Assembly: GCA_029243165.1 (NCBI GenBank)
Contig: JAQWSN010000034.1
Span: 1-64,000, forward strand
DNA length: 64,000 nt
Direction of reading: 5' to 3'
From: Flavobacteriaceae bacterium
Lineage (GTDB): Bacteria; Bacteroidota; Bacteroidia; Flavobacteriales; Flavobacteriaceae
The notes beneath the pieces were generated by a model. The model worked only from the letters and a program-made list of their open reading frames with translations. It was not told the DNA's origin and searched no databases. Shown in pieces: positions 3,915 through 14,637 of this stretch; within the stretch, counting starts at the first letter, position 1; each line of letters starts with the position of its first letter. A program made the translations under genes and the position numbers.

Positions 3915-6836
3915 TTATGAGTAGACTTTTTTAACCAGTGCTTCATTTAAAATACTGATTGGGTGCAAACTTTCTCTTCCAGTACCGTCTAATATTTGAT
4001 GACGACAACTGGTTCCATTTGCAGCAACGAGGGTTTCAGAATCCATTTTACGAACTGCGGGAAATAAGCGTTCTTCACCTACTTTCATGCTTACATCATA
4101 ATGCTCTTTTTCATAACCAAAAGAACCAGCCATACCACAACAACCCGTATTGAGAAGGCTAACCGAATAATTTTTGGGAAGATTCAATATTTGAAAGGTT
4201 TCATAAGGCTTTCCCAAAGCTTTTTGATAGCAGTGTGCATGAATTTTTATGTCTTTTTTTACTGTGTGAAATTGCTCAGAACGGATTGCACCAGCTTCAA
4301 TTTCTCGGGCTATGAAAGTCTCGATCAGCATGCAATGGGCAGCTAATTTTTTTGCATCGGTTGAAAAAGAACTCAGTTTGGGGTATTCATCCTGAAAGGA
4401 ATAGATAGCAGAGGGTTCAATGCCGAGCAATGGAGTTTCTTTGCTGATCAAATCTCGGTAAATTGAAACATTGTGATCCACACATTTTTTTGCTTGGTCT
4501 AAAAAACCTTTTGAAATGTATGTTCGCCCACTTTCTGTTGAAGGTAAGACATCAACTTGATACCCCAAACCTTCTAAAAGATCTAATGCAGCCTTACCGA
4601 TATGAGTTTCGTTGTAATTTGAAAACTCGTCCAGATACAAATAGACACGCTTACTGGATTTTTTAAAAACACGGTTTTGTAGTGTATCAAATAGACTCTT
4701 TTCGAGTTTGGGAAGACTTCTTTTAAAACTGATACCTAAAACAGATGCAGTAATTTTTCGAGTCATGGACAGTTTAAAAATTACATTTTGAATCCCTCGA
4801 AAAGGTTGCGCTATTTTATTTATTTTTCCAAAATTCGCAAAGATTTTATCACGTAGCGAACTACCATTTGCTTTTTGATATTGATGTAAAAATTCTGCCT
4901 TGTAGGTTGAAATGTCTACACTACTTGGACATTCAGTAGCACAGGCCTTACAACTCAGACATAAATCGAAAACCTCTTTGAGTTCTTTGCTGTCAAAAGC
5001 ATTGGGCTTTTTGTCTTGACTCAATACTTCTCTAAGTACATTTGCCCTACCCCGTGTATTGTGTTTTTCATCAAGAGTAGCTCGGTAACTTGGACACATT
5101 GCTCCAGTAGGTAATGTAGATCTGCATTGTCCAGCTCCATTACATTTTTCAGCTGCCCTTAACAAACCTTGATCTGCAGAAAAATCAAAAGTGGTTTTGT
5201 GGATTGGAGTATCTTTATTTTCAGTTCTTAAATTTTGATCCATGGGCAAAGGATCCACAATTTTACCTGGGTTGAATATTTTGTTAGGATCAAAAAGTGT
5301 TTTGATGTCCTGAAATAATTTGTAATTATTTTCGCCTACTACAATAGGAATGAATTCAGAACGAACAATTCCATCGCCGTGTTCTCCGCTAAGTGCGCCT
5401 TTGTATTTTTTTACAAGTCGAGCTACTGCAAGGGTTATGGCTCTGAAATCCTGAACCCCTTTTTTTGTTTTTAAGTTCAAGATCGGACGAAGATGCAATT
5501 CCCCTGCCCCTGCATGCGCATAATAAACGACCTTTTGATTAAAGTTTAACATCAGTTTCTGAAATTCATCTATGTAATCTGCAAGACGATTTAAAGGAAC
5601 AGCCGTGTCTTCTATGCATGCTACCGCTTTGTCATCACCAACTAAATTGCCTAATAAGCCCAAGCCAGCATGGCGCAACTCATTGGCTTTCTCGATCGAT
5701 TTATCCCATAAAGGAATAGCGGCATAACTCAATTCACTTTCTTGAACGGTCTTAATCAAAGAGGAAAGTTGTTCTTTAAGAACATCAGAATCATCCTCTC
5801 TGAGTTCTAATAACAAAATGGCTTTAGGATCTCCTTTTATGAAAAGGCGATGTTCCTGATATCCTGGATGATCTTTAGTACAGTCTAAAATGGTTTTATC
5901 CATCAATTCACAGGTGTACAATTTGTGTTTCATTACAGGCATAACTGTTCGCATGGCCTCCCCTATGCTCTTAAAATGAACTGCCAAAATTACAGCCTGC
6001 TTTGGGGGTATTGGAGTCAATTGGAGTGTAATCGCTGTAGTTAAGGCTAAAGTACCCTCACTTCCCGTAAGTAATTTAGAGAGATTGAAAGGTGCTCCTT
6101 TGGGGTCAAATGGTTTTTGCTTAATTAAACGATCTACTGCATAGCCCGTATTTCTTCTGTGGACACTTGCTTCAGGAAATTCTTCAGTAATTTCACGCTG
6201 TACGGATTCTTGGGATAATGTTTTCTTAAAAAAGGAATAGATAGATCCTTCTAAAGAAGACTGTTTTGCCTTTTCATTGAATTCTTCTTCATTTGTATTT
6301 TTAAAATGGGCATAAGAACCGTCAGAGAGCAGAACTTCCAGCGCTATGACTTGATCTCGGGTAACGCCGTATCGGATGGAAGTTGTTCCAGATGAGTTGT
6401 TACCTACCATACCCCCTATCATGCAATAAGCAGAAGTTGAGGTGTTGGGACCAAAAAAAAGTCCGTAAGGTTTTAAATAGGTGTTTAGAGTGTCTCGGTT
6501 TACCCCGGGTTGCAATCGGACGGTTTGTTCCTCTAGATTCAGTTCTATTATTTTGGTAAAATGCTTGGAAACATCAACCACAATTCCATTTCCCACACAT
6601 TGACCTGCAAGAGAGGTTCCAGCAGTTCGAGGTATCAGACTGGTCTTATGTGTTCTTGCAAATTGAATGAGTAGCTTTAAATCTTCGGAGTTTTTTGGGA
6701 AAGCTACGGCAAGGGGAAGCATTTTGTAAACAGAAGCATCAGTTGCGTACAGGGTCTGGTGTAACGTATCCCACTCCAACTCGCCTTCCAGTTGTTTTTT
6801 TAAATGTAGAAGATTTTTGTGCACCCCAATTACCAT
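3915..6836 (-). CDS. YdiJ-like FAD-linked oxidase / Fe-S dehydrogenase (candidate D-2-hydroxyglutarate dehydrogenase)
   Basis: A 973-residue fusion. The N-terminal FAD-binding (PCMH) domain shows PRTAGTSLAGQ and GGMVGNNSSGTTSIRYG; a FAD-oxidase C-terminal domain ends near residue 530. A ferredoxin-like module follows with cysteine clusters near residues 564-585 and 624-634 (CLSCKACATECP). The C-terminal CCG-type domain carries NTGCCGMAGSFGYE near residue 898. This is the layout of YdiJ and related membrane-associated 2-hydroxyacid dehydrogenases, which pass electrons to the respiratory chain. D-lactate or glycolate are possible substrates. D-2-hydroxyglutarate is favoured here because a DUF1338 dioxygenase that can make it lies 4 kb upstream on the same strand. 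Confidence 0.82.
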   Translation of the reverse strand: MVIGVHKNLLHLKKQLEGELEWDTLHQTLYATDASVYKMLPLAVAFPKNSEDLKLLIQFARTHKTSLIPRTAGTSLAGQCVGNGIVVDVSKHFTKIIELNLEEQTVRLQPGVNRDTLNTYLKPYGLFFGPNTSTSAYCMIGGMVGNNSSGTTSIRYGVTRDQVIALEVLLSDGSYAHFKNTNEEEFNEKAKQSSLEGSIYSFFKKTLSQESVQREITEEFPEASVHRRNTGYAVDRLIKQKPFDPKGAPFNLSKLLTGSEGTLALTTAITLQLTPIPPKQAVILAVHFKSIGEAMRTVMPVMKHKLYTCELMDKTILDCTKDHPGYQEHRLFIKGDPKAILLLELREDDSDVLKEQLSSLIKTVQESELSYAAIPLWDKSIEKANELRHAGLGLLGNLVGDDKAVACIEDTAVPLNRLADYIDEFQKLMLNFNQKVVYYAHAGAGELHLRPILNLKTKKGVQDFRAITLAVARLVKKYKGALSGEHGDGIVRSEFIPIVVGENNYKLFQDIKTLFDPNKIFNPGKIVDPLPMDQNLRTENKDTPIHKTTFDFSADQGLLRAAEKCNGAGQCRSTLPTGAMCPSYRATLDEKHNTRGRANVLREVLSQDKKPNAFDSKELKEVFDLCLSCKACATECPSSVDISTYKAEFLHQYQKANGSSLRDKIFANFGKINKIAQPFRGIQNVIFKLSMTRKITASVLGISFKRSLPKLEKSLFDTLQNRVFKKSSKRVYLYLDEFSNYNETHIGKAALDLLEGLGYQVDVLPSTESGRTYISKGFLDQAKKCVDHNVSIYRDLISKETPLLGIEPSAIYSFQDEYPKLSSFSTDAKKLAAHCMLIETFIAREIEAGAIRSEQFHTVKKDIKIHAHCYQKALGKPYETFQILNLPKNYSVSLLNTGCCGMAGSFGYEKEHYDVSMKVGEERLFPAVRKMDSETLVAANGTSCRHQILDGTGRESLHPISILNEALVKKVYS

Positions 6837-6844
6837 TTTTATTC

Positions 6845-6852
6845 CAAAGCTA
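6845..6852 (-). promoter_or_regulatory. Candidate -7 box for the YdiJ-like gene
   Basis: TAGCTTTG on the minus strand matches TAnnTTTG and ends 8 nt before the ATG at 6836, giving a very short leader. It is divergent from the box at 6891-6898. Confidence 0.45.
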
Positions 6853-6890
6853 AAATAAGGATAAGTTTTCCATGTTCCTTTTCAATTGTG

Positions 6891-6898
6891 TAAATTTG
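6891..6898 (+). promoter_or_regulatory. Candidate -7 box for the TlpA-like gene
   Basis: TAAATTTG matches the Bacteroidota -7 consensus and lies 17 nt before the chosen ATG (6916). It also shows that the upstream in-frame TTG at 6886 would be ahead of the transcript, which supports the later start. Confidence 0.5.
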
Positions 6899-6915
6899 TG
6901 GTTTACAAAGAAATT

Positions 6916-8028
6916 ATGAAAAATACAGTTTTCGGTTTGCTTATTGCGCTCATAGTATTCAATTCTTGTCAAAATTCCTCTGGTAATCTTAGAATCAAAG
7001 GGACTACAGATTTAGAAAACGGAAGTGCCTTGTACCATATCGTTGCAGATTTAAACAATCAGCCTAAAGTTTTAGACACGCTAATAGTGAAAGCAGGAGA
7101 GTTTAATTTAATTACTGAAAATGAAGCTCCCAGTATTCACTTTCTTCAAATTGAGGGGTTACAAGGAAATTTTCCTTTTGTTGCTGAGAAAGGAACGGTT
7201 GCTATCGAATTGTACAAAGACAGTTTAGGATCTTCAAGAGCAACAGGAACCGTGTCTAATGATGATTTCATGCAATACAAATCAGATACTCAAGTTTACA
7301 TTGCCTCCTTAAATGGCATAGGAAACGACCTCCAGCAAGCCATGATTTTAAATGACACTCTTCTTGCAGAAGATTTGAAAGAACAGTATCAAGACGTTAG
7401 AGATCAAATTCAAGAATACGAATTGAATTTTATCAAATCGGCACCGAATTCCTTTATTTCGATTTTAATATTAGAGCGTTTTGTTGCTAACAACATCATT
7501 CAAATCCCTGAAGCCAAAGAATTATTCGATGGTTTTACTGAACGGATTAAAAATACTCCATCTGGAAAGGCTATTGGAGATCTTTTAAAAAAAACGCCCA
7601 AGGCTGAAGTAGGTCAATTGGCTCCTCTTTTTGAGGGACCTGATCCTGACGGTGGAACCTTCAGTTTAGAAGATCGTTTGGGTAAAATAACGATTATTGA
7701 TTTTTGGGCAAGTTGGTGTAGACCCTGTCGAGTTGAGAATCCTAATCTTGTTCGCTTATTCAACAAACATAAAGACAAAGGGCTTCAGATTGTTGGAGTA
7801 TCTCTAGATCGGACTAAACCTAAGTGGATTCAGGCCATTGCAGACGATGGACTCGTATGGGATCATGTTTCTAATCTTCAATTTTGGAACGATCCGATAG
7901 CCAAACTGTACAAGGTGTCTGCCATCCCTGCTACTTTTATTTTAGACGAAAATGGGGTTATTCTTACCCGAGATTTGAGAGGTCCAATGCTTGAAAGAAA
8001 AATTGACGAGTTACTTGGAAATATGTGA
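6916..8028 (+). CDS. TlpA-like thiol:disulfide oxidoreductase lipoprotein with N-terminal DUF4369-like domain
   Basis: A 370-residue protein from ATG 6916, chosen over the in-frame TTG at 6886 because it gives a lipoprotein signal (MKNTVFGLLI, lipobox ending at C18) and follows the promoter box. The first part resembles the DUF4369 beta domain common in Bacteroidota, followed by a helical linker. The C-terminal thioredoxin fold carries WASWCRPCRVEN with the CxxC redox pair and the cis-Pro region SAIPATF. It is probably anchored in the cell envelope and reduces or resolves periplasmic thiols, as TlpA/ResA proteins do. It converges with the rhomboid gene with 1 nt between stops. Confidence 0.87.
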   Translation: MKNTVFGLLIALIVFNSCQNSSGNLRIKGTTDLENGSALYHIVADLNNQPKVLDTLIVKAGEFNLITENEAPSIHFLQIEGLQGNFPFVAEKGTVAIELYKDSLGSSRATGTVSNDDFMQYKSDTQVYIASLNGIGNDLQQAMILNDTLLAEDLKEQYQDVRDQIQEYELNFIKSAPNSFISILILERFVANNIIQIPEAKELFDGFTERIKNTPSGKAIGDLLKKTPKAEVGQLAPLFEGPDPDGGTFSLEDRLGKITIIDFWASWCRPCRVENPNLVRLFNKHKDKGLQIVGVSLDRTKPKWIQAIADDGLVWDHVSNLQFWNDPIAKLYKVSAIPATFILDENGVILTRDLRGPMLERKIDELLGNM

Positions 8029-8029
8029 T

Positions 8030-8683
8030 TTACCGTTGCTGTCTGTAAAGTAATACTCCTGCAGTAATTACCGCAAGTGAAAGAATACTGAGCATGAGTA
8101 TTGATGAGTAAAGTACTTCGGGCTTTACCAAAAGTGTTATTAAAATCCCCCCAATTGCTCCACCAAAATGTGCTGTATGACCAATCGTATCATTTTGAGC
8201 TTTCATACCATACAAAGTGTACAAAATGTAACCAATTCCAAACAGATAACCCGGTATGGGTATCGGAATAAGAAAAAGCATGAGTTCGATGTTGGGGTAC
8301 AAAAGAAGAGCACTAAACAAGACGCCTGTTACGGCACCACTAGCTCCAACTGCGGAATAGTAGCTGTCTTTAAAATGAAAGTAATAAGCAAAAAAGTTGC
8401 CTGCTAGTAGGCTGCCAAGAAATAGTCCTAAAAATGAAACCGTCCCCAACATCCCTACAACTATGTTGACAAAAAAATAAAAGGTAAACATGTTAAATAA
8501 AAGATGGGTGGTGTTTACATGAAGAAATCCAGAAGAAAGTAACCTAAAATATTCACCTTCTCTAATTTTTCCAATTTGAAAACGGTATTGATCAAAGAAG
8601 TTATCGTTTTTAAAACCGATGAATGTAAAAAGGATATTTAACCCAATGATAAGAATTCCTACTAGAGGAAGGTTTTGTAACAT
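8030..8683 (-). CDS. Rhomboid family intramembrane serine protease
   Basis: A 217-residue membrane protein with six to seven hydrophobic segments. The catalytic serine motif GASGAVTG places Ser115, and the second catalytic residue is His172 in GHTAHFGGAIGG; HVNTTHLLFNM (residues 55-65) is the usual second-helix signature. Rhomboids cleave transmembrane substrates inside the bilayer; the substrate here is unknown. It sits between the ALDH and YdiJ-like genes on the same strand, 33 nt after the ALDH gene, but shows no evident link to lysine metabolism. Confidence 0.92.
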   Translation of the reverse strand: MLQNLPLVGILIIGLNILFTFIGFKNDNFFDQYRFQIGKIREGEYFRLLSSGFLHVNTTHLLFNMFTFYFFVNIVVGMLGTVSFLGLFLGSLLAGNFFAYYFHFKDSYYSAVGASGAVTGVLFSALLLYPNIELMLFLIPIPIPGYLFGIGYILYTLYGMKAQNDTIGHTAHFGGAIGGILITLLVKPEVLYSSILMLSILSLAVITAGVLLYRQQR

Positions 8684-8716
8684 GGCTCTAATCTAAGTTA
8701 AATTCCAAATAAAACC

Positions 8717-10252
8717 TTACAGATCAAAAATAATTCCTTGCGCTAAAGGTAGGTCTTTAGAATAGTTAATGGTATTGGTTTGACGTCGCATGTAGGCCTT
8801 CCATGCATCAGAACCACTTTCACGTCCCCCTCCTGTATCTTTTTCACCACCAAAGGCACCACCAATTTCAGCACCAGATGTTCCTATGTTTACGTTGGCA
8901 ATACCACAATCACTGCCCCAGTGCGCTAAAAAAGTTTCTGTTTCCTGAATATTAAGTGACATGATGGATGAGGACAACCCTTGTTTGACTTCGTTTTGAA
9001 TATCAATAGCCTTTTCAACTCCTCCTTTGTATTTCATGACATACAGTATTGGCGCAAATGTTTCTTGATGAACAATTGGTGCATTGTGATCAATTAGGGC
9101 AACAGCAGGTTTTACATAGCAGTCACTCCCAAGAGTATCTTTACTCATTCTTCCTCCAGGCACCAACCATTCTCCTCCTTGTTCTTCCACTTGATTAAGT
9201 GCATTTACATAGGTATTTACAGCATCCTCATCGATCAAGGGTCCGAGATGATTGTTTTCATCCAGTGGGTTTCCAATCCTCAATTGGCCATATGCCTTTT
9301 TGAGATTTTGTGTAAAAGAATCGAAAATGTCTTCATGTACAATGAGTCTTCGAGTAGAAGTACAGCGTTGTCCGCAAGTACCAACAGCTCCAAAAATTGC
9401 CGCTCTCATGGCGGTATCAAGATCAGCATTTGGAGTAATAATAATTGCATTGTTTCCTCCGAGTTCTAGAAGAGACTTCCCTAACCTAGCTCCAACACGT
9501 TGAGCAACATCTTTTCCCATTCGGGTAGATCCAGTGGCAGAAACCAAGGCTACACGATGATCTTCAGCAAGCCATTTACCGACATCAGCACCTCCGGATA
9601 AAACTGTAGAAATTCCTTCAGGATATTTATTTTCACGTAAAACTTCACTAACTATTTGTTGACAGGCAATACTGCAGAAAGGAGTTTTTTCGCTTGGTTT
9701 CCAAATACACACATTACCACAAACCCATGCCAATGCAACATTCCAACTCCACACAGCTACAGGAAAATTAAATGCTGAGATTACTCCAACGATACCTAGG
9801 GGATGATATTGTTCATAAAGCCTATGAAGAGGACGTTCAGAGGTCATTGTAAAGCCATGAAGCTGCCTAGAAAGTCCGACAGCAAAGTCACAGATGTCGA
9901 TCATTTCTTGAACTTCTCCAAGCCCTTCTTGTAAGGATTTTCCCATTTCCCAAGAAACCAATTGACCAAGAGCTTGTTTTTTTTCTCGAAGTTTGTTTCC
10001 CAGTTGACGGACCATTTCTCCTCGTTTAGGAGCAGGGATTTTTCGAAAGCTTAAAAAAGCGTGTTCCGCTTTTGCAATAGCATTTTCGTAGTCCTCTACT
10101 GTTGCGCTTGAGACAGTTCCTAACTCGGAACCATCTACAGGACTAAACGATCTTATGGTTTCACCTGAACCGTACCAAGTTTTCCCAGAATGACAACCTT
10201 TCTGTGAAGAAGAAACATTTAGTTCTTGGAGTAATTCATTAAAATTCTGCAT
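8717..10252 (-). CDS. ALDH7-type aldehyde dehydrogenase (candidate 2-aminoadipate semialdehyde dehydrogenase)
   Basis: A 511-residue NAD(P)-dependent aldehyde dehydrogenase. The catalytic nucleophile is Cys297 in GTCGQRCTSTRR and the general base is Glu263 in LLELGGNNA, the ALDH7 (antiquitin) form of this motif. ALDH7 enzymes oxidise 2-aminoadipate-6-semialdehyde, in equilibrium with piperideine-6-carboxylate, to 2-aminoadipate. The DUF1338 gene ends 2 nt upstream and the saccharopine-dehydrogenase-like gene precedes that, which supports the lysine-catabolic assignment over a general aldehyde role. Full length with no key residue missing. Confidence 0.9.
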   Translation of the reverse strand: MQNFNELLQELNVSSSQKGCHSGKTWYGSGETIRSFSPVDGSELGTVSSATVEDYENAIAKAEHAFLSFRKIPAPKRGEMVRQLGNKLREKKQALGQLVSWEMGKSLQEGLGEVQEMIDICDFAVGLSRQLHGFTMTSERPLHRLYEQYHPLGIVGVISAFNFPVAVWSWNVALAWVCGNVCIWKPSEKTPFCSIACQQIVSEVLRENKYPEGISTVLSGGADVGKWLAEDHRVALVSATGSTRMGKDVAQRVGARLGKSLLELGGNNAIIITPNADLDTAMRAAIFGAVGTCGQRCTSTRRLIVHEDIFDSFTQNLKKAYGQLRIGNPLDENNHLGPLIDEDAVNTYVNALNQVEEQGGEWLVPGGRMSKDTLGSDCYVKPAVALIDHNAPIVHQETFAPILYVMKYKGGVEKAIDIQNEVKQGLSSSIMSLNIQETETFLAHWGSDCGIANVNIGTSGAEIGGAFGGEKDTGGGRESGSDAWKAYMRRQTNTINYSKDLPLAQGIIFDL

Positions 10253-10254
10253 AA

Positions 10255-11160
10255 TTATTTTTTTAATTGTGAAGTAAATGTACTTTCAAATATTCGATCT
10301 GCATTGGAGGTTTCAAACCCTTCTCTTCTGTGTTTTCTTTGAATCAATTTTTGGCTCAGGTCACAAAACTCAGGCAACACGCTACGCTCAGCGAACTCTA
10401 CATAGCTCCCTGCAATTTTTCGGGTTGCACCTTCAGCAAAAGTAGCTTGCACTTGGTTGGCTACTGAACTGGATTGCCTAAGGAGTTTGTCCTGACTTGT
10501 TTTAATTTCTCCACCTGAATCATTTAGTTTAATGCCAATAGACTTTAGAAACCCATTGAAAGACTCTAAAACATTAAATTTTTCAGGGAGATCGTGAACA
10601 CTTATGGTGTAATGATTCAAGTAATAACGATTGTAAATTACCCATGCGGCATATTCACTTTCGGCAAGTAAATTTTCATAATCGGTCATGCTAGGTAGTG
10701 ACCAAAGCGGTGTCTGAAAAAATTCAGCTACTGCATTAACATCATTCAGATCCAAGGCATCTACAGGATCAGAAGTGATTTGAGATACATGTTTTTTGAT
10801 AATATGTTGAGTAGGCTCACTAAGTAAGTCAACTTTGAGCTCACTAATAAAAACACGAGGTAAATCATCCGTTGGTGGTGCATACCAATGGGCATCCAGT
10901 TTTTTTGATTCGAAATGGTAAAAGTCCTTACGACTGTAATCGTGGGCAAGAAAAATTTTTTCAAATGAAGCAATTCCAAGATTGGGTACTCCTAAAGTTC
11001 GGAAGGCGACGTGATCATTAACAATATCGGTCTGATCCTCTACCATTCCTTTTTCAATCATAGCTTGGGTGATTTTCCGAACATCTGGTACGCGGGCTTC
11101 ATAAACTTTAAAAAGAGCGTCCAAAATTTGGGTCATGGGGGTGGTACTTTTAAACTTCAT
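10255..11160 (-). CDS. DUF1338 family 2-oxoadipate dioxygenase/decarboxylase (HglS-like, short form)
   Basis: A 301-residue member of DUF1338. The characterised Pseudomonas member HglS is a non-haem Fe(II) enzyme converting 2-oxoadipate to D-2-hydroxyglutarate with O2 and loss of CO2. Likely metal ligands are His50 (VNDHVAFRT), His183 (LNHYTISVHD) and Glu255 (GSYVEFAER); Arg54 in HxxxR is the expected substrate carboxylate contact. It is shorter than HglS or YdcJ (about 450 residues), lacking their C-terminal extension, as in the plant and Bacteroidota short forms. It sits 18 nt after the saccharopine-dehydrogenase-like gene and 2 nt before the ALDH7 gene, probably in one operon. Confidence 0.85.
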   Translation of the reverse strand: MKFKSTTPMTQILDALFKVYEARVPDVRKITQAMIEKGMVEDQTDIVNDHVAFRTLGVPNLGIASFEKIFLAHDYSRKDFYHFESKKLDAHWYAPPTDDLPRVFISELKVDLLSEPTQHIIKKHVSQITSDPVDALDLNDVNAVAEFFQTPLWSLPSMTDYENLLAESEYAAWVIYNRYYLNHYTISVHDLPEKFNVLESFNGFLKSIGIKLNDSGGEIKTSQDKLLRQSSSVANQVQATFAEGATRKIAGSYVEFAERSVLPEFCDLSQKLIQRKHRREGFETSNADRIFESTFTSQLKK

Positions 11161-11178
11161 AATGCATCTTTGTTTTTA

Positions 11179-12240
11179 TTAGGTTAAAAATAAACTTCCT
11201 GTTGGAGTTTTCAAGAATTTATCAAAGGGAATTTCTTCTTGTTTTAAAAATCCCTTTTGGGGTAGGGTCTTTGCAGCGACCATTTCAATCACTGCAACAA
11301 TTGAAGCCGCAGTGGTCCATGAGATTGCACGCCATTTTTTTCCTTGGATTTCCATAGGATAAAAAGCTTTGTAATATTCTTTACGAGACAAGGTTTCTTT
11401 TTGCCAGCCCTCAGCAACTGCATAAACATAAACAACATCTTCTTCCACGGGTGGTTTTGCATTGCTCAAAATGCGTTCTAATTGTTCTTTATCGTCTTTT
11501 AAGATTAGTTCATACATTAAGAATCGCATCAGTTTACCATGTCCTGGATAACGAATTGTTTTGTAATTTAAGGTATCTACCTTCCCTTCGAATGTTTCAC
11601 AAAGCGTACCTAATCCTCCGGAAGTAGTAAAGGCTTCAAATTCTTGTCCTTCAATATTGATGTATTCAAACCCCTCTAGTGAGGGTACTAGTTTTCTTTC
11701 TCCATTGTGAATTGCCTCGGCGTCATTGAGGTATTCATTGATCACGCCATAAGGAGACCAGGTAAATGAATAGGCCAATTGACCGTTCGGATACCGAGGT
11801 AAAGCACCCACACGCAATTCTATGTCGCGTAAGCGATCAAAGGGTGTACACAAATCTTTACCAACGATCCCAATAAATCCAGGGGCCAAACCACATTGGG
11901 GTGCCAGAATCTTTTTCGCTGTCTTTTGTAAACTCTGAATGAATTGAGTGGTGGGTACATCTTCGGTTAAGTCAAAATAATGAATCCTCAGATCGTGTGC
12001 CAATTGAGCAATATTTTTGTTTAAAAAATAAGGTAAGGCAGAAACCACAGCATCGTGTTTTACCATCTGATCTGCAAGCCATTTTAGGTTTGTCACATCA
12101 CCTTTAACACACTCAAAGGGAAGATCGTAGTTGTAATGGGGCTTTTTTTGATCTACGGCTTTGACTTTAAAATTTTTACTTAGTAGAACTCCTACTAAAC
12201 TTCCAACTTTGCCCATACCTAGGACTAAAATATTTTCCAT
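11179..12240 (-). CDS. Saccharopine dehydrogenase family protein (candidate saccharopine oxidoreductase, Lys9-like)
   Basis: A 353-residue protein from ATG 12240. I chose this start because MENILVLGMGKVGSLVG opens directly with the Rossmann dinucleotide-binding motif; an in-frame start 39 nt upstream would add 13 unconserved residues and overlap a palindrome. Family features include DLTEDV near residue 80, APQCGLAPGF (residues 108-117) and a C-terminal KGFLKQEEIP segment. Enzymes of this family cleave saccharopine to glutamate and 2-aminoadipate semialdehyde; carboxynorspermidine dehydrogenase is a related alternative. Downstream ALDH7 and DUF1338 genes favour the lysine role. The saccharopine-forming partner is not in the window. 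Confidence 0.83.
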   Translation of the reverse strand: MENILVLGMGKVGSLVGVLLSKNFKVKAVDQKKPHYNYDLPFECVKGDVTNLKWLADQMVKHDAVVSALPYFLNKNIAQLAHDLRIHYFDLTEDVPTTQFIQSLQKTAKKILAPQCGLAPGFIGIVGKDLCTPFDRLRDIELRVGALPRYPNGQLAYSFTWSPYGVINEYLNDAEAIHNGERKLVPSLEGFEYINIEGQEFEAFTTSGGLGTLCETFEGKVDTLNYKTIRYPGHGKLMRFLMYELILKDDKEQLERILSNAKPPVEEDVVYVYAVAEGWQKETLSRKEYYKAFYPMEIQGKKWRAISWTTAASIVAVIEMVAAKTLPQKGFLKQEEIPFDKFLKTPTGSLFLT

Positions 12241-12268
12241 ATTTAACAAATTTTGTAAATAATGTTTT

Positions 12269-12289
12269 ATTTGTAACAAAATTACAAAT
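12269..12289. promoter_or_regulatory. Perfect inverted repeat, candidate operator of the lysine-degradation operon
   Basis: ATTTGTAA-N5-TTACAAAT, two perfect 8-nt arms around CAAAA, lies 29-49 nt upstream of the saccharopine-dehydrogenase-like start. The position and symmetry fit a dimeric repressor or activator site. No regulator gene is adjacent. A less perfect copy (arms ATTTAACAAA/TTTTGTAAAT) abuts the start codon at 12241-12260. Confidence 0.45.
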
Positions 12290-12364
12290 TGAACTGAATA
12301 GATAAAAGTTTAATTTAAATAGAGTTTGAAAAGTTTTTAACACCCGAATTATCATTAAAAAAAG

Positions 12365-12372
12365 TAAATTTG
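12365..12372 (+). promoter_or_regulatory. Candidate -7 box for the LpxL-like gene
   Basis: TAAATTTG matches TAnnTTTG and lies 17 nt before the GTG start at 12390. Confidence 0.45.
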
Positions 12373-12389
12373 CAGTTTAAAAATTACAT

Positions 12390-13265
12390 GTGAACGCCTT
12401 AGTTTATTATCTCTCTTTTCCAATCTTATTTTTAATTTCAAGATTGCCTTTTCCCCTCTTTTATTTGTTTTCAGATGGGGTTTGTTTTTTGCTTTATCGT
12501 GTTTTGGGTTATCGTAAAGCTGTAGTTCGTTCTAATTTAAAACTTGCATTTCCAGAACTTAAAGAAAAGGAGTACCAACAGATTGAAAGAAAGTTTTACC
12601 GTCATCTCTGCGATTTATTTCTAGAAATCATCAAGTCCATGGGGATGGGGAAAAAAGAAATGCTGAAGCGTTTTAAAGTCAAAAACATAGAGGTGTTAAC
12701 CCAATTTGAAAGTGAGAACCGTTCCGCTTTTATCATGTGTGGACATTACGCCAGTTGGGAATGGATGATGTCCTTGGGATATCACATGAATCATTTAGGT
12801 TACGGTATTTACCGCCCCATTAAAAATCCTTATTTTGATCGATTGATTAAAAGCATTAGAAGTCGTCATGATGCTTTTATGATTCCCCAAAAAACAGCAG
12901 CTGAAGTGATTCGTTTACGAGAGAAAAAAAATCAGCGGGGTGTCTATGGTTTTGCAAGTGATCAGTCTCCACGCCCCTCAGCCAAGTCGTATTGGAGAAC
13001 TTTTATGGGCGTTGAAGTTCCAGTATTTACTGGAGCAGAGCGCTTGGCAAGAGAGCTCAATATCCCAATCGTATTTGGCAACATTAATCGCGTTAAACGA
13101 GGATATTATGAGCTGGAATTTAAATTACTTTCGGGTCAGCCAAAGAAAACTAAAGAAAATGAAATAACCGATATTTACACGAATTGGCTTGAAGAGCAAA
13201 TAAAAAAAGATCCCACTCAATACTTTTGGACGCACAAACGGTTCAAACATGCTAGACTCAAATAA
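12390..13265 (+). CDS. Lysophospholipid/lipid A acyltransferase family protein (LpxL/HtrB-like)
   Basis: A 291-residue inner-membrane acyltransferase. The N-terminal hydrophobic anchor (residues 5-40) is followed by the HX4(D/E) catalytic motif as His119 to Glu124 in CGHYASWEW. FASDQSPRP (residues 188-196) and the C-terminal YFWTHKRFK (residues 277-285) are characteristic of the LpxL/LpxM family, which adds secondary acyl chains to Kdo-lipid A. The start is GTG at 12390; an ATG two bases earlier is out of frame and immediately hits a stop. The last 8 nt overlap the convergent glmM gene. Confidence 0.85.
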   Translation: MNALVYYLSFPILFLISRLPFPLFYLFSDGVCFLLYRVLGYRKAVVRSNLKLAFPELKEKEYQQIERKFYRHLCDLFLEIIKSMGMGKKEMLKRFKVKNIEVLTQFESENRSAFIMCGHYASWEWMMSLGYHMNHLGYGIYRPIKNPYFDRLIKSIRSRHDAFMIPQKTAAEVIRLREKKNQRGVYGFASDQSPRPSAKSYWRTFMGVEVPVFTGAERLARELNIPIVFGNINRVKRGYYELEFKLLSGQPKKTKENEITDIYTNWLEEQIKKDPTQYFWTHKRFKHARLK

Positions 13266-14637
13266 TAGCTTTAATTTCGGTTTCAAATTGAAGGGCGAGC
13301 TCATCGGCTTCTGACTGAGATTTTGCTTCGGTGTAAACCCTGATGATCGGTTCAGTATTTGATTTGCGTAAATGTACCCAAGCTGTTTTAAAATCGATTT
13401 TCAAGCCGTCAACCGAATTGGTTTTTTCATTTGAATAAGCATTCTCTAAATGATTAAGTATCTCATCTACATCCGTTCCTTCTTTGAGGTCTATTTTATT
13501 TTTACTCATGAAGTAATTTGGATAGGATGCTCTAAGGTGAGAGACACTTACCTTTCTTTCCACCAAAAGTGATAAGAATAGAACTACTCCAACAAGAGCA
13601 TCTCTTCCGTAATGTAAATCAGGATAAATAATTCCCCCATTACCCTCTCCTCCAATGACAGCAGAGGTTCTTTTCATCTCCGCAACTACATTAACTTCGC
13701 CAACAGCACTGGCAGAATAGGATTGACCGTGAGATTCAGTGACATCGGCTAAAGCACGTGTTGAAGACAAATTGGAGACGGTCGCTCCTGGTGTTTTATC
13801 CAAGATGTAATCTGCACAAGCCACCAATGTGTATTCTTCTCCAAATAATTCCCCTTTTTCGTCAACAAAAACAAGCCGATCTACATCGGGATCCACTGCT
13901 ATTCCAAAATCAGCTTTATGTTTTACAACAGCTTCACATAAATCTGTCAAATGTTCTTTTAAAGGCTCTGGATTGTGTGGAAATTCTCCATTGGGGGTAC
14001 AATGTATTTTAACGACCTCAATATCAAGGGCTTCGAGTAAATTTGGAATTGCAATTCCTCCAGAAGAATTGACACCGTCAACTACAACTTTAAATCGATG
14101 CTTTTTGATTTTTTCGGTTTCGACCCGATTCATTGCTAAACAAGCAGTTATGTGATTTTCTAACGCATCCGTTTTAGCTATGATATTTCCTAAATTTTCC
14201 ACAGTGGCGTATTCAAAAGCTTCTTTTTCAGCAAAATTCAATACTTCTTCTCCTGCGTTTGCATCAATAAATTCTCCATTTTTATTTAGTAGTTTTAATG
14301 CATTCCACTGCTTTGGATTATGACTGGCGGTCAGTACAATGCCTCCATGTGCATGTACTGTAGGAACGGTAAGTGCTACGGTTGGTGTGGTAGAAAGCTC
14401 TAAGCTTATTACGTCAATACCCATACCTACTAGGGTTTGATTTACCAGACTGTGTACCATGGGTCCTGAAATTCTTGCATCACGCCCGGTGACAACAGTT
14501 AGTTTTTCGGAATGCGTTTTCTTAAGCCATTGTGCATAAGCGCTTGTAAACCTAACGATGTCAATAGGACTTAGATTAGAACCTGTTGATCCTCCTAGAG
14601 TTCCACGGATGCCTGAAATGGATTTGATTAATGTCAT
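13258..14637 (-). CDS. glmM: Phosphoglucosamine mutase (GlmM-like phosphohexomutase)
   Basis: A 459-residue alpha-D-phosphohexomutase. The active-site phosphoserine is Ser105 in TASHNPKQWN, the metal loop is DPDVDR, and the sugar-binding EGNGGIIYP motif and C-terminal phosphate-binding SNTEPIIRVYTEA are present. GlmM isomerises glucosamine-6-phosphate to glucosamine-1-phosphate for peptidoglycan and LPS precursors; phosphomanno/glucomutase activity is possible in this family. It lies 41 nt downstream of the porin gene on the same strand and overlaps the convergent acyltransferase gene by 8 nt. Confidence 0.87.
   Translation of the reverse strand: MTLIKSISGIRGTLGGSTGSNLSPIDIVRFTSAYAQWLKKTHSEKLTVVTGRDARISGPMVHSLVNQTLVGMGIDVISLELSTTPTVALTVPTVHAHGGIVLTASHNPKQWNALKLLNKNGEFIDANAGEEVLNFAEKEAFEYATVENLGNIIAKTDALENHITACLAMNRVETEKIKKHRFKVVVDGVNSSGGIAIPNLLEALDIEVVKIHCTPNGEFPHNPEPLKEHLTDLCEAVVKHKADFGIAVDPDVDRLVFVDEKGELFGEEYTLVACADYILDKTPGATVSNLSSTRALADVTESHGQSYSASAVGEVNVVAEMKRTSAVIGGEGNGGIIYPDLHYGRDALVGVVLFLSLLVERKVSVSHLRASYPNYFMSKNKIDLKEGTDVDEILNHLENAYSNEKTNSVDGLKIDFKTAWVHLRKSNTEPIIRVYTEAKSQSEADELALQFETEIKAII

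What the first reader, a model, noticed from the sequence alone, without database searches (positions are those of the whole stretch)
3915..12240. Minus-strand lysine-degradation gene set: saccharopine dehydrogenase, ALDH7, short DUF1338 dioxygenase and YdiJ-like dehydrogenase
Three adjacent genes (2-18 nt gaps) encode a saccharopine-dehydrogenase-like enzyme, an HglS-like DUF1338 protein with His50/His183/Glu255, and an ALDH7 enzyme with Cys297/Glu263. About 1.9 kb further, after a rhomboid gene and a gene on the opposite strand, comes a 973-residue FAD/Fe-S dehydrogenase of the YdiJ type. In Pseudomonas, HglS makes D-2-hydroxyglutarate from 2-oxoadipate and a YdiJ-type enzyme oxidises it. 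Seen here: motifs and order. Known: HglS and YdiJ-type roles. Inferred: a route from saccharopine to 2-oxoglutarate in this organism, using a eukaryote-like saccharopine branch upstream and a bacterial D-2HG branch downstream. The first step and the aminoadipate aminotransferase must be elsewhere.
Basis: partly seen in the sequence, partly recalled or inferred. Interest (0 to 1): 0.72.

Follow-up and report, generated by a model that had tools for sequence, protein, structure and literature searches.

The report
One-step lysine breakdown gene cluster
A small-genome flavobacterium carries a three-gene lysine-breakdown cluster that probably starts with a single-step lysine dehydrogenase rather than the two-step saccharopine route, and feeds a plant-like enzyme making D-2-hydroxyglutarate.

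Summary
The pathway idea is mostly right, but its first step is mis-assigned. The 'saccharopine dehydrogenase' (11179-12240) is best read as an L-lysine 6-dehydrogenase (LysDH): its best solved relative is PH1688/3abi, it groups (100/100) with alphaproteobacterial proteins including a Ruegeria LysDH-type one, and it is remote from true saccharopine and carboxyspermidine dehydrogenases. No lysine-ketoglutarate reductase (LKR) was found in the genome. In 50 chosen HGLS-bearing genomes, LKR-type proteins accompany the 450-residue saccharopine dehydrogenase (12 of 12) but rarely the window type (1 of 29); 9 of 50 have neither entry. LysDH sits beside HGLS in 31 of 80 Bacteroidota-dominated loci. 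Three of nine plasmid regions viewed, all Rhizobium, carry LysDH, ALDH7, an aminotransferase, HglS and YdiJ together. The likely route is lysine, P6C, 2-aminoadipate, 2-oxoadipate, D-2-hydroxyglutarate, 2-oxoglutarate. The YdiJ-like enzyme is the weakest link: it adjoins HGLS in other families and shares E. coli YdiJ active-site residues, but fails the YdiJ cut-off, and a D-lactate dehydrogenase (Dld) replaces it in 11 of 33 same-genus genomes. All activities are inferred.

The parts
11179..12240 (-). SDH-like protein, 353 aa; read here as L-lysine 6-dehydrogenase (LysDH); ATG start at 12240
   Evidence: Best PDB hit 3abi/PH1688 1.6e-20, then 3ic5 (118 aa, deposited as putative saccharopine dehydrogenase) 1.7e-10; true SDHs 1.8e-5 to 1e-3; 100/100 clade with Ruegeria and Rhizobium homologues, apart from 450-aa SDH and CASDH
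10255..11160 (-). HGLS/DUF1338, 301 aa, 2-oxoadipate dioxygenase/decarboxylase of the short, FLO7-like type
   Evidence: PF07063; best PDB 6w1k hydroxyglutarate synthase 4e-59; H50, R54, H183, E255 invariant in 8 homologues
8717..10252 (-). ALDH7 / L-piperidine-6-carboxylate dehydrogenase, 511 aa
   Evidence: NF050084 804.9 vs cut-off 730; best PDB 10fm 3.5e-178, alpha-aminoadipic semialdehyde dehydrogenases at about 1e-167 to 1e-169; E263, C297
8030..8683 (-). rhomboid protease gene, 33 nt downstream of ALDH7; possibly co-transcribed, no pathway role inferred
   Evidence: PF01694; same place in the genus loci mapped
6886..8028 (+). TlpA/AhpC-like thiol-disulfide protein on the opposite strand (bystander)
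   Evidence: PF00578, PF14289
3915..6836 (-). YdiJ-like FAD/Fe-S D-2-hydroxyacid dehydrogenase, 973 aa; candidate D-2-hydroxyglutarate dehydrogenase
   Evidence: NF049975 612 vs cut-off 1350, so below the family line; R388, K403, H441, H448, R450, E485, H486 shared with E. coli YdiJ; only FAD-oxidase_C match in the genome

Best explanation
The cluster encodes a short L-lysine catabolic route. (1) The SDH-like protein is an NAD-dependent L-lysine 6-dehydrogenase that oxidises lysine to allysine/piperideine-6-carboxylate in one step. (2) ALDH7 oxidises that to 2-aminoadipate. (3) An aminotransferase encoded elsewhere gives 2-oxoadipate; the best candidate is G000:C26:190835-192001. (4) HGLS, an Fe(II) dioxygenase/decarboxylase of the plant FLO7 type, turns 2-oxoadipate into D-2-hydroxyglutarate and CO2. 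(5) The YdiJ-like flavo-iron-sulfur enzyme oxidises D-2-hydroxyglutarate to 2-oxoglutarate. Shown here: families, motifs, gene order, phylogenetic placement, no LKR found in the held genome, and co-occurrence. Inferred: every activity in this organism, NAD as cofactor, the aminotransferase, and step 5 most weakly (about 0.6 on its own).
For: Best solved relative is 3abi, named an L-lysine 6-dehydrogenase in PMC10413350 (passages read). Controls behave as expected: a 456-aa Bacteroidota SDH matches fungal and human saccharopine dehydrogenases at 2e-68 to 2e-65, a 403-aa paralogue matches carboxyspermidine dehydrogenase at 6e-197, and an LKR-type protein matches the human LKR domain at 6e-38. 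Tree: window type plus Ruegeria/Rhizobium proteins lie in a 100/100 clade of 26 of 41 rows. R. pomeroyi SPO0234 is listed as lysdh and SPO0235 as aasadh with updated function, and that paper says several genes of its lysine pathways were verified by experiment (PMC4334477, passages); a Ruegeria plasmid has such a pair, its SDH 40% identical to the window's. The own genome has 1 PF16653 match (the window's) and 1 PF05222 match, which passes the alanine-dehydrogenase cut-off. In 50 HGLS genomes, LKR-type proteins occur in 12 of 12 with 450-aa SDH and 1 of 29 with window-type SDH. In 3 of 9 plasmid regions viewed, all Rhizobium, HglS, ALDH, an aminotransferase and YdiJ lie beside an SDH-like gene 39-40% identical to the window's with no LKR annotated; in the one tested, HglS scores 739 vs 550, P6C dehydrogenase 798 vs 730 and YdiJ 1462 vs 1350. 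YdiJ-like directly follows HGLS in 8 of 80 loci.
Against: No assay exists for any of these proteins. The held genome is 94.18% complete, so an LKR could be missing from it. The Ruegeria protein used is not SPO0234 itself, and R. pomeroyi is said to have the saccharopine route too. In 6 of 9 plasmid regions viewed the SDH-like gene lacks the full cluster. 9 of 50 HGLS genomes have neither window-type SDH nor LKR, so HGLS can be fed some other way. The YdiJ-like protein fails the curated YdiJ cut-off; it is common in the family without HGLS, and Dld stands in its place in 11 of 33 genus genomes. Human D2HGDH Lys401 has no evident counterpart in it by my hand alignment. HGLS persists in genus genomes that lost LysDH. 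Structure prediction never ran.
Confidence: 0.78

Rival explanations
1. One reading: the SDH-like protein is a true saccharopine dehydrogenase, and a lysine-ketoglutarate reductase lies elsewhere in the genome.
For: Pfam names the domains Sacchrp_dh_NADP and Sacchrp_dh_C; public annotation calls many homologues 'saccharopine dehydrogenase' proteins; 3ic5 was deposited under that name.
Against: Remote from solved SDHs and about 100 residues shorter than the 456-aa control; no LKR found in the genome; LKR-type proteins accompany it in 1 of 29 genomes but the 450-aa SDH in 12 of 12.
Confidence: 0.08
2. LysDH plus ALDH7 mainly make 2-aminoadipate or pipecolate as an osmolyte, and HGLS with the dehydrogenase only clear the overflow.
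For: In R. pomeroyi the LysDH route is said to be preferred at high salt and to yield aminoadipate (PMC4334477, passage); the genus holds records labelled MS024-2A and Fram Strait bins (by equal contig lengths), which I recall as marine.
Against: 31 of 80 HGLS loci have LysDH beside HGLS, including genera that I recall as not marine (Flavihumibacter, Emticicia, Chitinophaga) (the scan was made with HGLS, which biases this).
Confidence: 0.15
3. The YdiJ-like enzyme is a D-lactate dehydrogenase unrelated to the lysine genes; D-2-hydroxyglutarate is oxidised by another enzyme or excreted.
For: In stretches from 33 of 38 genus genomes I found exactly one of YdiJ-like (22) or E. coli-type Dld (11), Dld in two separate clades; Dld scores 874 vs cut-off 391; 16 of 19 family genomes of other genera without HGLS have YdiJ-like; it fails the YdiJ cut-off.
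Against: Arg450 occupies the place of human D2HGDH Asn443 and mouse LDHD Ile407 and matches E. coli and Rhizobium YdiJ (residues from PMC7801405 and PMC10589216, passages); YdiJ-like directly follows HGLS in 8 of 80 named loci and lies one regulator away in L148 and L088. One of the 8, Arsenicibacter, lacks the arginine.
Confidence: 0.35

Closest known systems
Ruegeria pomeroyi lysdh-aasadh (SPO0234-SPO0235)
   Same: Lysine dehydrogenase and aminoadipate-semialdehyde dehydrogenase under consecutive locus tags; same protein families, judged through a Ruegeria sp. AD91A plasmid homologue 40% identical to the window's SDH
   Different: HGLS lies between the two genes in the window; the Ruegeria plasmid pair has cyanophycin genes beside it and no HGLS annotated in the stretch seen
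Rhizobium plasmid lysine clusters (pRiA4, R. leguminosarum Vaf10, Rhizobium sp. 007)
   Same: SDH-like, ALDH, HglS and YdiJ together, no LKR annotated
   Different: Includes the aminotransferase; HglS is the long 463-aa type and YdiJ passes the curated cut-off (tested in Vaf10)
Pseudomonas putida D-lysine route with HglS
   Same: 2-oxoadipate to D-2-hydroxyglutarate by a PF07063 enzyme
   Different: D-lysine catabolism (PMC7286885, opening of the abstract); HglS about 464 aa (recalled) against 301 aa here
Plant LKR/SDH to FLO7 route
   Same: 6w1k (hydroxyglutarate synthase; the FLO7 structure, by recall of the code and the paper) is the closest solved relative of the window HGLS and acts on 2-oxoadipate
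   Different: Plants enter by bifunctional LKR/SDH through saccharopine (PMC7253579, passages)
Polaribacter glomeratus and other flavobacterial genomes with LKR plus 450-aa SDH
   Same: The same HGLS back end; in L168 the 456-aa SDH is divergent next to HGLS
   Different: Two-step saccharopine front end in place of LysDH

Membership tests
L-lysine 6-dehydrogenase (LysDH) | Closest to LysDH in sequence among solved SDH-superfamily enzymes | tested here: met
   3abi 1.6e-20 vs 1.8e-5 or weaker for SDHs of known function
L-lysine 6-dehydrogenase (LysDH) | Clade with experimentally supported LysDH | tested here: inconclusive
   100/100 clade with a Ruegeria AD91A homologue, a stand-in for SPO0234 whose own sequence was not compared; PH1688 itself lies outside that clade; the tree carries long-branch warnings and the clade also holds two long-branched rows of unknown function
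L-lysine 6-dehydrogenase (LysDH) | Works without LKR | tested here: met
   No LKR found in own genome; LKR-type in 1 of 29 genomes with window-type SDH
L-lysine 6-dehydrogenase (LysDH) | NAD+-dependent oxidation of L-lysine | not testable with these tools
   Needs an enzyme assay; D30, at the end of the second strand of the nucleotide fold by my reading, is nearly invariant
Saccharopine dehydrogenase (LYS9/AASS type) | Sequence and length like 1e5q/2axq/5l78 (about 450 aa) | tested here: not met
   353 aa, E 1.8e-5 to 1e-3, against 2e-68 for the 456-aa control
Saccharopine dehydrogenase (LYS9/AASS type) | Genomic partnership with LKR | tested here: not met
Carboxyspermidine dehydrogenase | Sequence like 8deb/4rl6/4ina | tested here: not met
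   No hit to them at E 0.01; the Bacteroidota CASDH is a different paralogue
PF07063 HGLS, 2-oxoadipate dioxygenase/decarboxylase | HHE metal triad and 2-oxoadipate-binding Arg | tested here: met
   H50, H183, E255, R54; criterion from PMC7286885 (sections 7 and 8 read)
PF07063 HGLS, 2-oxoadipate dioxygenase/decarboxylase | Curated long HglS model NF049974 | tested here: not met
   No NCBIfam hit at E 1e-3; it belongs to the short FLO7-like branch by its best PDB match
P6C / alpha-aminoadipic semialdehyde dehydrogenase | NF050084 cut-off and catalytic Cys/Glu | tested here: met
   804.9 vs 730; C297, E263
D-2-hydroxyglutarate dehydrogenase YdiJ | NF049975 cut-off 1350 | tested here: not met
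   612.5; so not filed as a YdiJ member, only as possibly working like one
D-2-hydroxyglutarate dehydrogenase YdiJ | YdiJ active-site residues, polar/charged distal pocket | tested here: met
   R388, K403, H441, H448, R450, E485, H486 as in E. coli YdiJ; Rhizobium YdiJ has Arg at 403, Arsenicibacter lacks R450; human D2HGDH Lys401 has no evident counterpart in the window or E. coli protein (hand alignment)
D-2-hydroxyglutarate dehydrogenase YdiJ | Substrate D-2-hydroxyglutarate rather than D-lactate | tested here: inconclusive
   HGLS adjacency elsewhere against Dld exchange in the genus

The most novel reading that the evidence does not exclude
In this genus an E. coli-type D-lactate dehydrogenase (Dld) and the YdiJ-like enzyme are interchangeable occupants of one chromosomal slot and do the same job after HGLS. 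Dld would then have taken over D-2-hydroxyglutarate oxidation, while lysine 6-dehydrogenase and LKR plus 450-aa SDH are interchangeable front ends on the same plant-type HGLS back end across Bacteroidota. That would make a modular lysine pathway whose first and last enzymes are both swapped.
Probability: 0.2. Interest if true: 0.6.

Novelty: new variant of a known kind. Interest (0 to 1): 0.45.

Why it matters
Proteins of this type are annotated as saccharopine dehydrogenases, so public genomes would be credited with a saccharopine pathway they seem to lack. If right, many Bacteroidota degrade lysine in one step to P6C and then through D-2-hydroxyglutarate with a plant-like HGLS, giving simple test cases for which front end (LysDH or LKR plus SDH) a genome uses. 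The Dld/YdiJ exchange gives a natural test of what these widespread FAD/Fe-S dehydrogenases oxidise.

Tried and rejected
Rejected: saccharopine dehydrogenase, carboxyspermidine dehydrogenase, and lysine 6-aminotransferase as the entry (TIGR03251 over its cut-off in 4 of 100 relatives, none in the genus). The PF01565 search was too noisy to decide who has Dld (about 340-aa proteins, probably MurB, fill the list, and it was cut off); I draw nothing from it. Structure prediction of the SDH-like protein could not be run, so no fold comparison was made.

Literature: nine searches of the held library. I saw listings, some of them capped: 20 of 107 papers, 10 of 643, 12 of 36, 15 of 28. No listed paper ties LysDH to HGLS in Bacteroidota: none of the 20 held 'lysine 6-dehydrogenase', none of the 10 held 'HglS', none of the 15 held 'lysine dehydrogenase'. 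Neshich 2013, Yoneda 2010 and Thompson 2019 are not held, so this is no proof that the link is unpublished. PMC9007349 was looked at through passages only and said nothing on this pathway.

In the 50-genome test I chose 50 of 80 genomes (30 with an SDH-like gene beside HGLS as first mapped, 20 without), so the sample is not random. Window-type SDH was then also found away from HGLS in 3 of those 20 (G139, G143, G146), giving 29. LKR-type was assigned by PF05222 score (49-80 bits) and an open frame of 402-480 aa; five such sequences were read (L247-L250, L252), one was tested against the PDB. The 97-132-bit PF05222 group was taken as not LKR; one of it (L253) was tested and best matches alanine dehydrogenase below the cut-off. 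Low PF05222 hits in G101 and G130 (about 380 aa; G101's has no NCBIfam match at 1e-20) and fragments in G110 were not counted as LKR; counting G101's would make 2 of 29. Four Chitinophaga genomes with a 40-41%-identical SDH-like gene and a full LKR plus SDH set were counted as lacking the window type. Fisher p 2.5e-5 (1 of 29 against 12 of 21) ignores kinship. Searches cover stretches from 33 of 38 genus genomes; G011, G018, G019, G024 and G027 were not fetched. G005, G008 and G013 end inside the SDH gene; G014, G032 and G035 do not show that slot. For G025 and G026 the YdiJ-like gene was found but its neighbours were not mapped. Dld was not searched for in whole genomes.

Full report
Four minus-strand genes lie at 3915-12240 as described, with gaps of 18, 2 and 33 nt and the stated catalytic residues. 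The SDH-like gene starts at the ATG at 12240; several relatives show stops only when the longer TTG extension is included. HGLS also has R54, the position that in HglS (Arg74) and FLO7 (Arg64) binds 2-oxoadipate (PMC7286885, sections 7 and 8 read; equated by the equal spacing from the first metal histidine). H50, R54, H183 and E255 are invariant in 8 homologues.

What the SDH-like gene is. Its best solved relative is PH1688 (3abi, 1.6e-20), then 3ic5 (1.7e-10, a 118-aa construct deposited as 'putative saccharopine dehydrogenase'); saccharopine dehydrogenases of known function follow at 1.8e-5 and weaker, and carboxyspermidine dehydrogenases do not appear at E 0.01. PMC10413350 (passages) names 3abi an L-lysine 6-dehydrogenase. 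Three controls from the same phylum behave as they should: a 456-aa protein next to HGLS in Polaribacter glomeratus (L168) matches fungal and human SDH at 2e-68 to 2e-65; a 403-aa paralogue matches carboxyspermidine dehydrogenase at 6e-197; an LKR-type protein matches the human LKR domain at 6e-38. On a 41-row tree the window type joins alphaproteobacterial proteins (Ruegeria, Rhizobium, Sinorhizobium, Azospirillum and others) in a 100/100 clade of 26 rows, apart from 450-aa SDHs and CASDHs. That clade also holds two long-branched Bacteroidota proteins of unknown function, PH1688 sits outside it on a long branch, and the program warned of long branches. In R. pomeroyi, SPO0234 is listed as lysdh and SPO0235 as aasadh with updated function, and the paper says several genes of its two lysine routes were verified by experiment (PMC4334477, passages). 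A plasmid of Ruegeria sp. AD91A carries such a pair, its SDH 40% identical to the window's and closely matching 3ic5. I did not compare SPO0234 itself.

Is a lysine-ketoglutarate reductase needed? The own genome (2.09 Mb, 94.18% complete) has one PF16653 match, the window's, and one PF05222 match, which passes the alanine dehydrogenase cut-off, 506 vs 392. Among 50 of the 80 named HGLS genomes, the 450-aa SDH occurs in 12 and all 12 have an LKR-type protein; window-type SDH occurs in 29 and LKR in 1 of these, an 11.2 Mb bin; 9 of 50 have neither. So the window type works without LKR, and HGLS genomes use one front end or the other, or an unknown one. The sample was chosen, not random, and kinship is not corrected.

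Conserved neighbourhood. A scan with the HGLS alignment kept the best 80 of 558 confirmed stretches. A tblastn recount found SDH-like in 31 of 80, always on the same strand within about 100 bp of HGLS (27 window-type at 64-88%, 4 Chitinophaga at 41%); ALDH7 in 25 of 80 (21 within 300 bp); YdiJ-like in 12 of 80 (8 within 300 bp, in Sphingobacterium, Mucilaginibacter, a Sphingobacteriaceae strain and Arsenicibacter); 450-aa SDH in 1; Dld in 1; LKR and the Rhizobium-type aminotransferase in none. 31 of 80 loci showed no pathway gene. The commonest clusters outside the pathway were in 8 of 80. By record titles the SDH-HGLS carriers span Flavobacteriaceae, Saprospiraceae, Chitinophagaceae and Cytophagales.

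Independent assembly. Of 83 plasmid records with an SDH-like homologue I viewed nine regions. Three, all Rhizobium, carry LysR, a VOC protein, ALDH, aminotransferase, an FAD/Fe-S protein, Lrp and the SDH-like gene; one (Ruegeria) has SDH-like plus ALDH; the other five have no such cluster. In the R. leguminosarum copy the VOC protein is HglS, and HglS, P6C dehydrogenase and YdiJ pass their curated cut-offs (739/550, 798/730, 1462/1350), so the SDH-like protein is the only evident entry from lysine there; the plasmid gene tables are incomplete, so an unlisted LKR is not excluded. The aminotransferase of that cluster has its best own-genome match at G000:C26:190835-192001, 44% (4 matches in all); this could equally be a housekeeping aspartate aminotransferase.

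The last step. The YdiJ-like protein scores 612 against a cut-off of 1350 for YdiJ. It shares R388, K403, H441, H448, R450, E485 and H486 with E. coli YdiJ. By the published residues (PMC7801405, PMC10589216, passages) and equal spacing from the two metal histidines, R450 stands where human D2HGDH has Asn443, which binds the distal carboxylate, and mouse LDHD has Ile407. R450 is kept in 9 of 10 aligned rows, the exception being Arsenicibacter, whose gene adjoins HGLS. Human Lys401, the other key residue, has no evident counterpart in the window or E. coli protein by my hand alignment. Residues and adjacency to HGLS in other families favour D-2-hydroxyglutarate. Against it, 16 of 19 family genomes of other genera without HGLS have the enzyme. 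In stretches from 33 of 38 genus genomes I found YdiJ-like in 22 and E. coli-type Dld in 11, never both; where mapped, both occupy the slot between tlpA-like and aroC; Dld scores 874 vs cut-off 391. Dld bearers fall in two clades of an 8-gene tree, and Dld identity between the clades is close to that of aroC, so both alleles look old. Of 29 genomes checked, the 17 with YdiJ-like have it as their only FAD-oxidase_C match, and the 11 Dld genomes and G041 have none. I keep the D-2-hydroxyglutarate reading at about 0.6.

Decay. LysDH is missing or broken while HGLS stays in the eight-genome Dld clade (7 with the slot visible), and separately in G002, G029, G022 and G020. ALDH7 stays open there except in G037, where it has a stop near its end. 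What feeds HGLS there is unexplained; LKR was not searched in those genomes, and no lysine 6-aminotransferase over the cut-off was found.

Verdict. The gene set is real and the pathway idea mostly right, but the entry step is best read as a one-step lysine dehydrogenase encoded in the cluster itself. Each enzyme kind is known; the combination with a FLO7-type HGLS in Bacteroidota is a variant I saw in no listed paper of nine searches of a partial library.

Noticed in passing
window 3915-6836; L063-L069, L072, L079, L080 and L135: YdiJ-like and E. coli-type Dld exchange within the genus: 22 and 11 of 33 genomes with stretches in hand, never both, Dld in two clades; in L070 (G002) the Dld gene is broken in two.
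   Followed up: partly
L063, L070, L071, L073, L075, L077 against window 11179-12240: LysDH repeatedly lost or broken in the genus (small remnants with stops in G001 and G022, a contig-end fragment with a stop in G005, broken pieces in G020) while HGLS and mostly ALDH7 stay open; G037's ALDH7 has a stop near its end.
   Followed up: partly
L088 (G083) 8871-13295: A distant short HGLS (36%) divergent from an Lrp/AsnC-like regulator followed by a YdiJ-like gene: another HGLS-YdiJ neighbour pair.
   Followed up: no
L264 (Ruegeria sp. AD91A plasmid): LysDH-type and ALDH genes directly followed by cyanophycinase and cyanophycin synthetase genes, a possible tie of lysine breakdown to cyanophycin.
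   Followed up: no
L082 (G012) 6024-8707: A TonB-dependent-receptor-like gene (by eye), in two ORFs, sits between lpxL and LysDH in one genus member.
   Followed up: no
L293 (G101) 646-1785 and L294 (G130) 163-1305: A 380-aa protein with weak AlaDh_PNT_N similarity; G101's has no NCBIfam match at 1e-20; not counted as LKR, function unknown.
   Followed up: no
L263 (Ochrobactrum sp. MT180101 plasmid): A lone SDH-like gene 55% identical to the window's, grouping inside the Bacteroidota clade, on a plasmid typed as conjugative: possible gene transfer between phyla.
   Followed up: no
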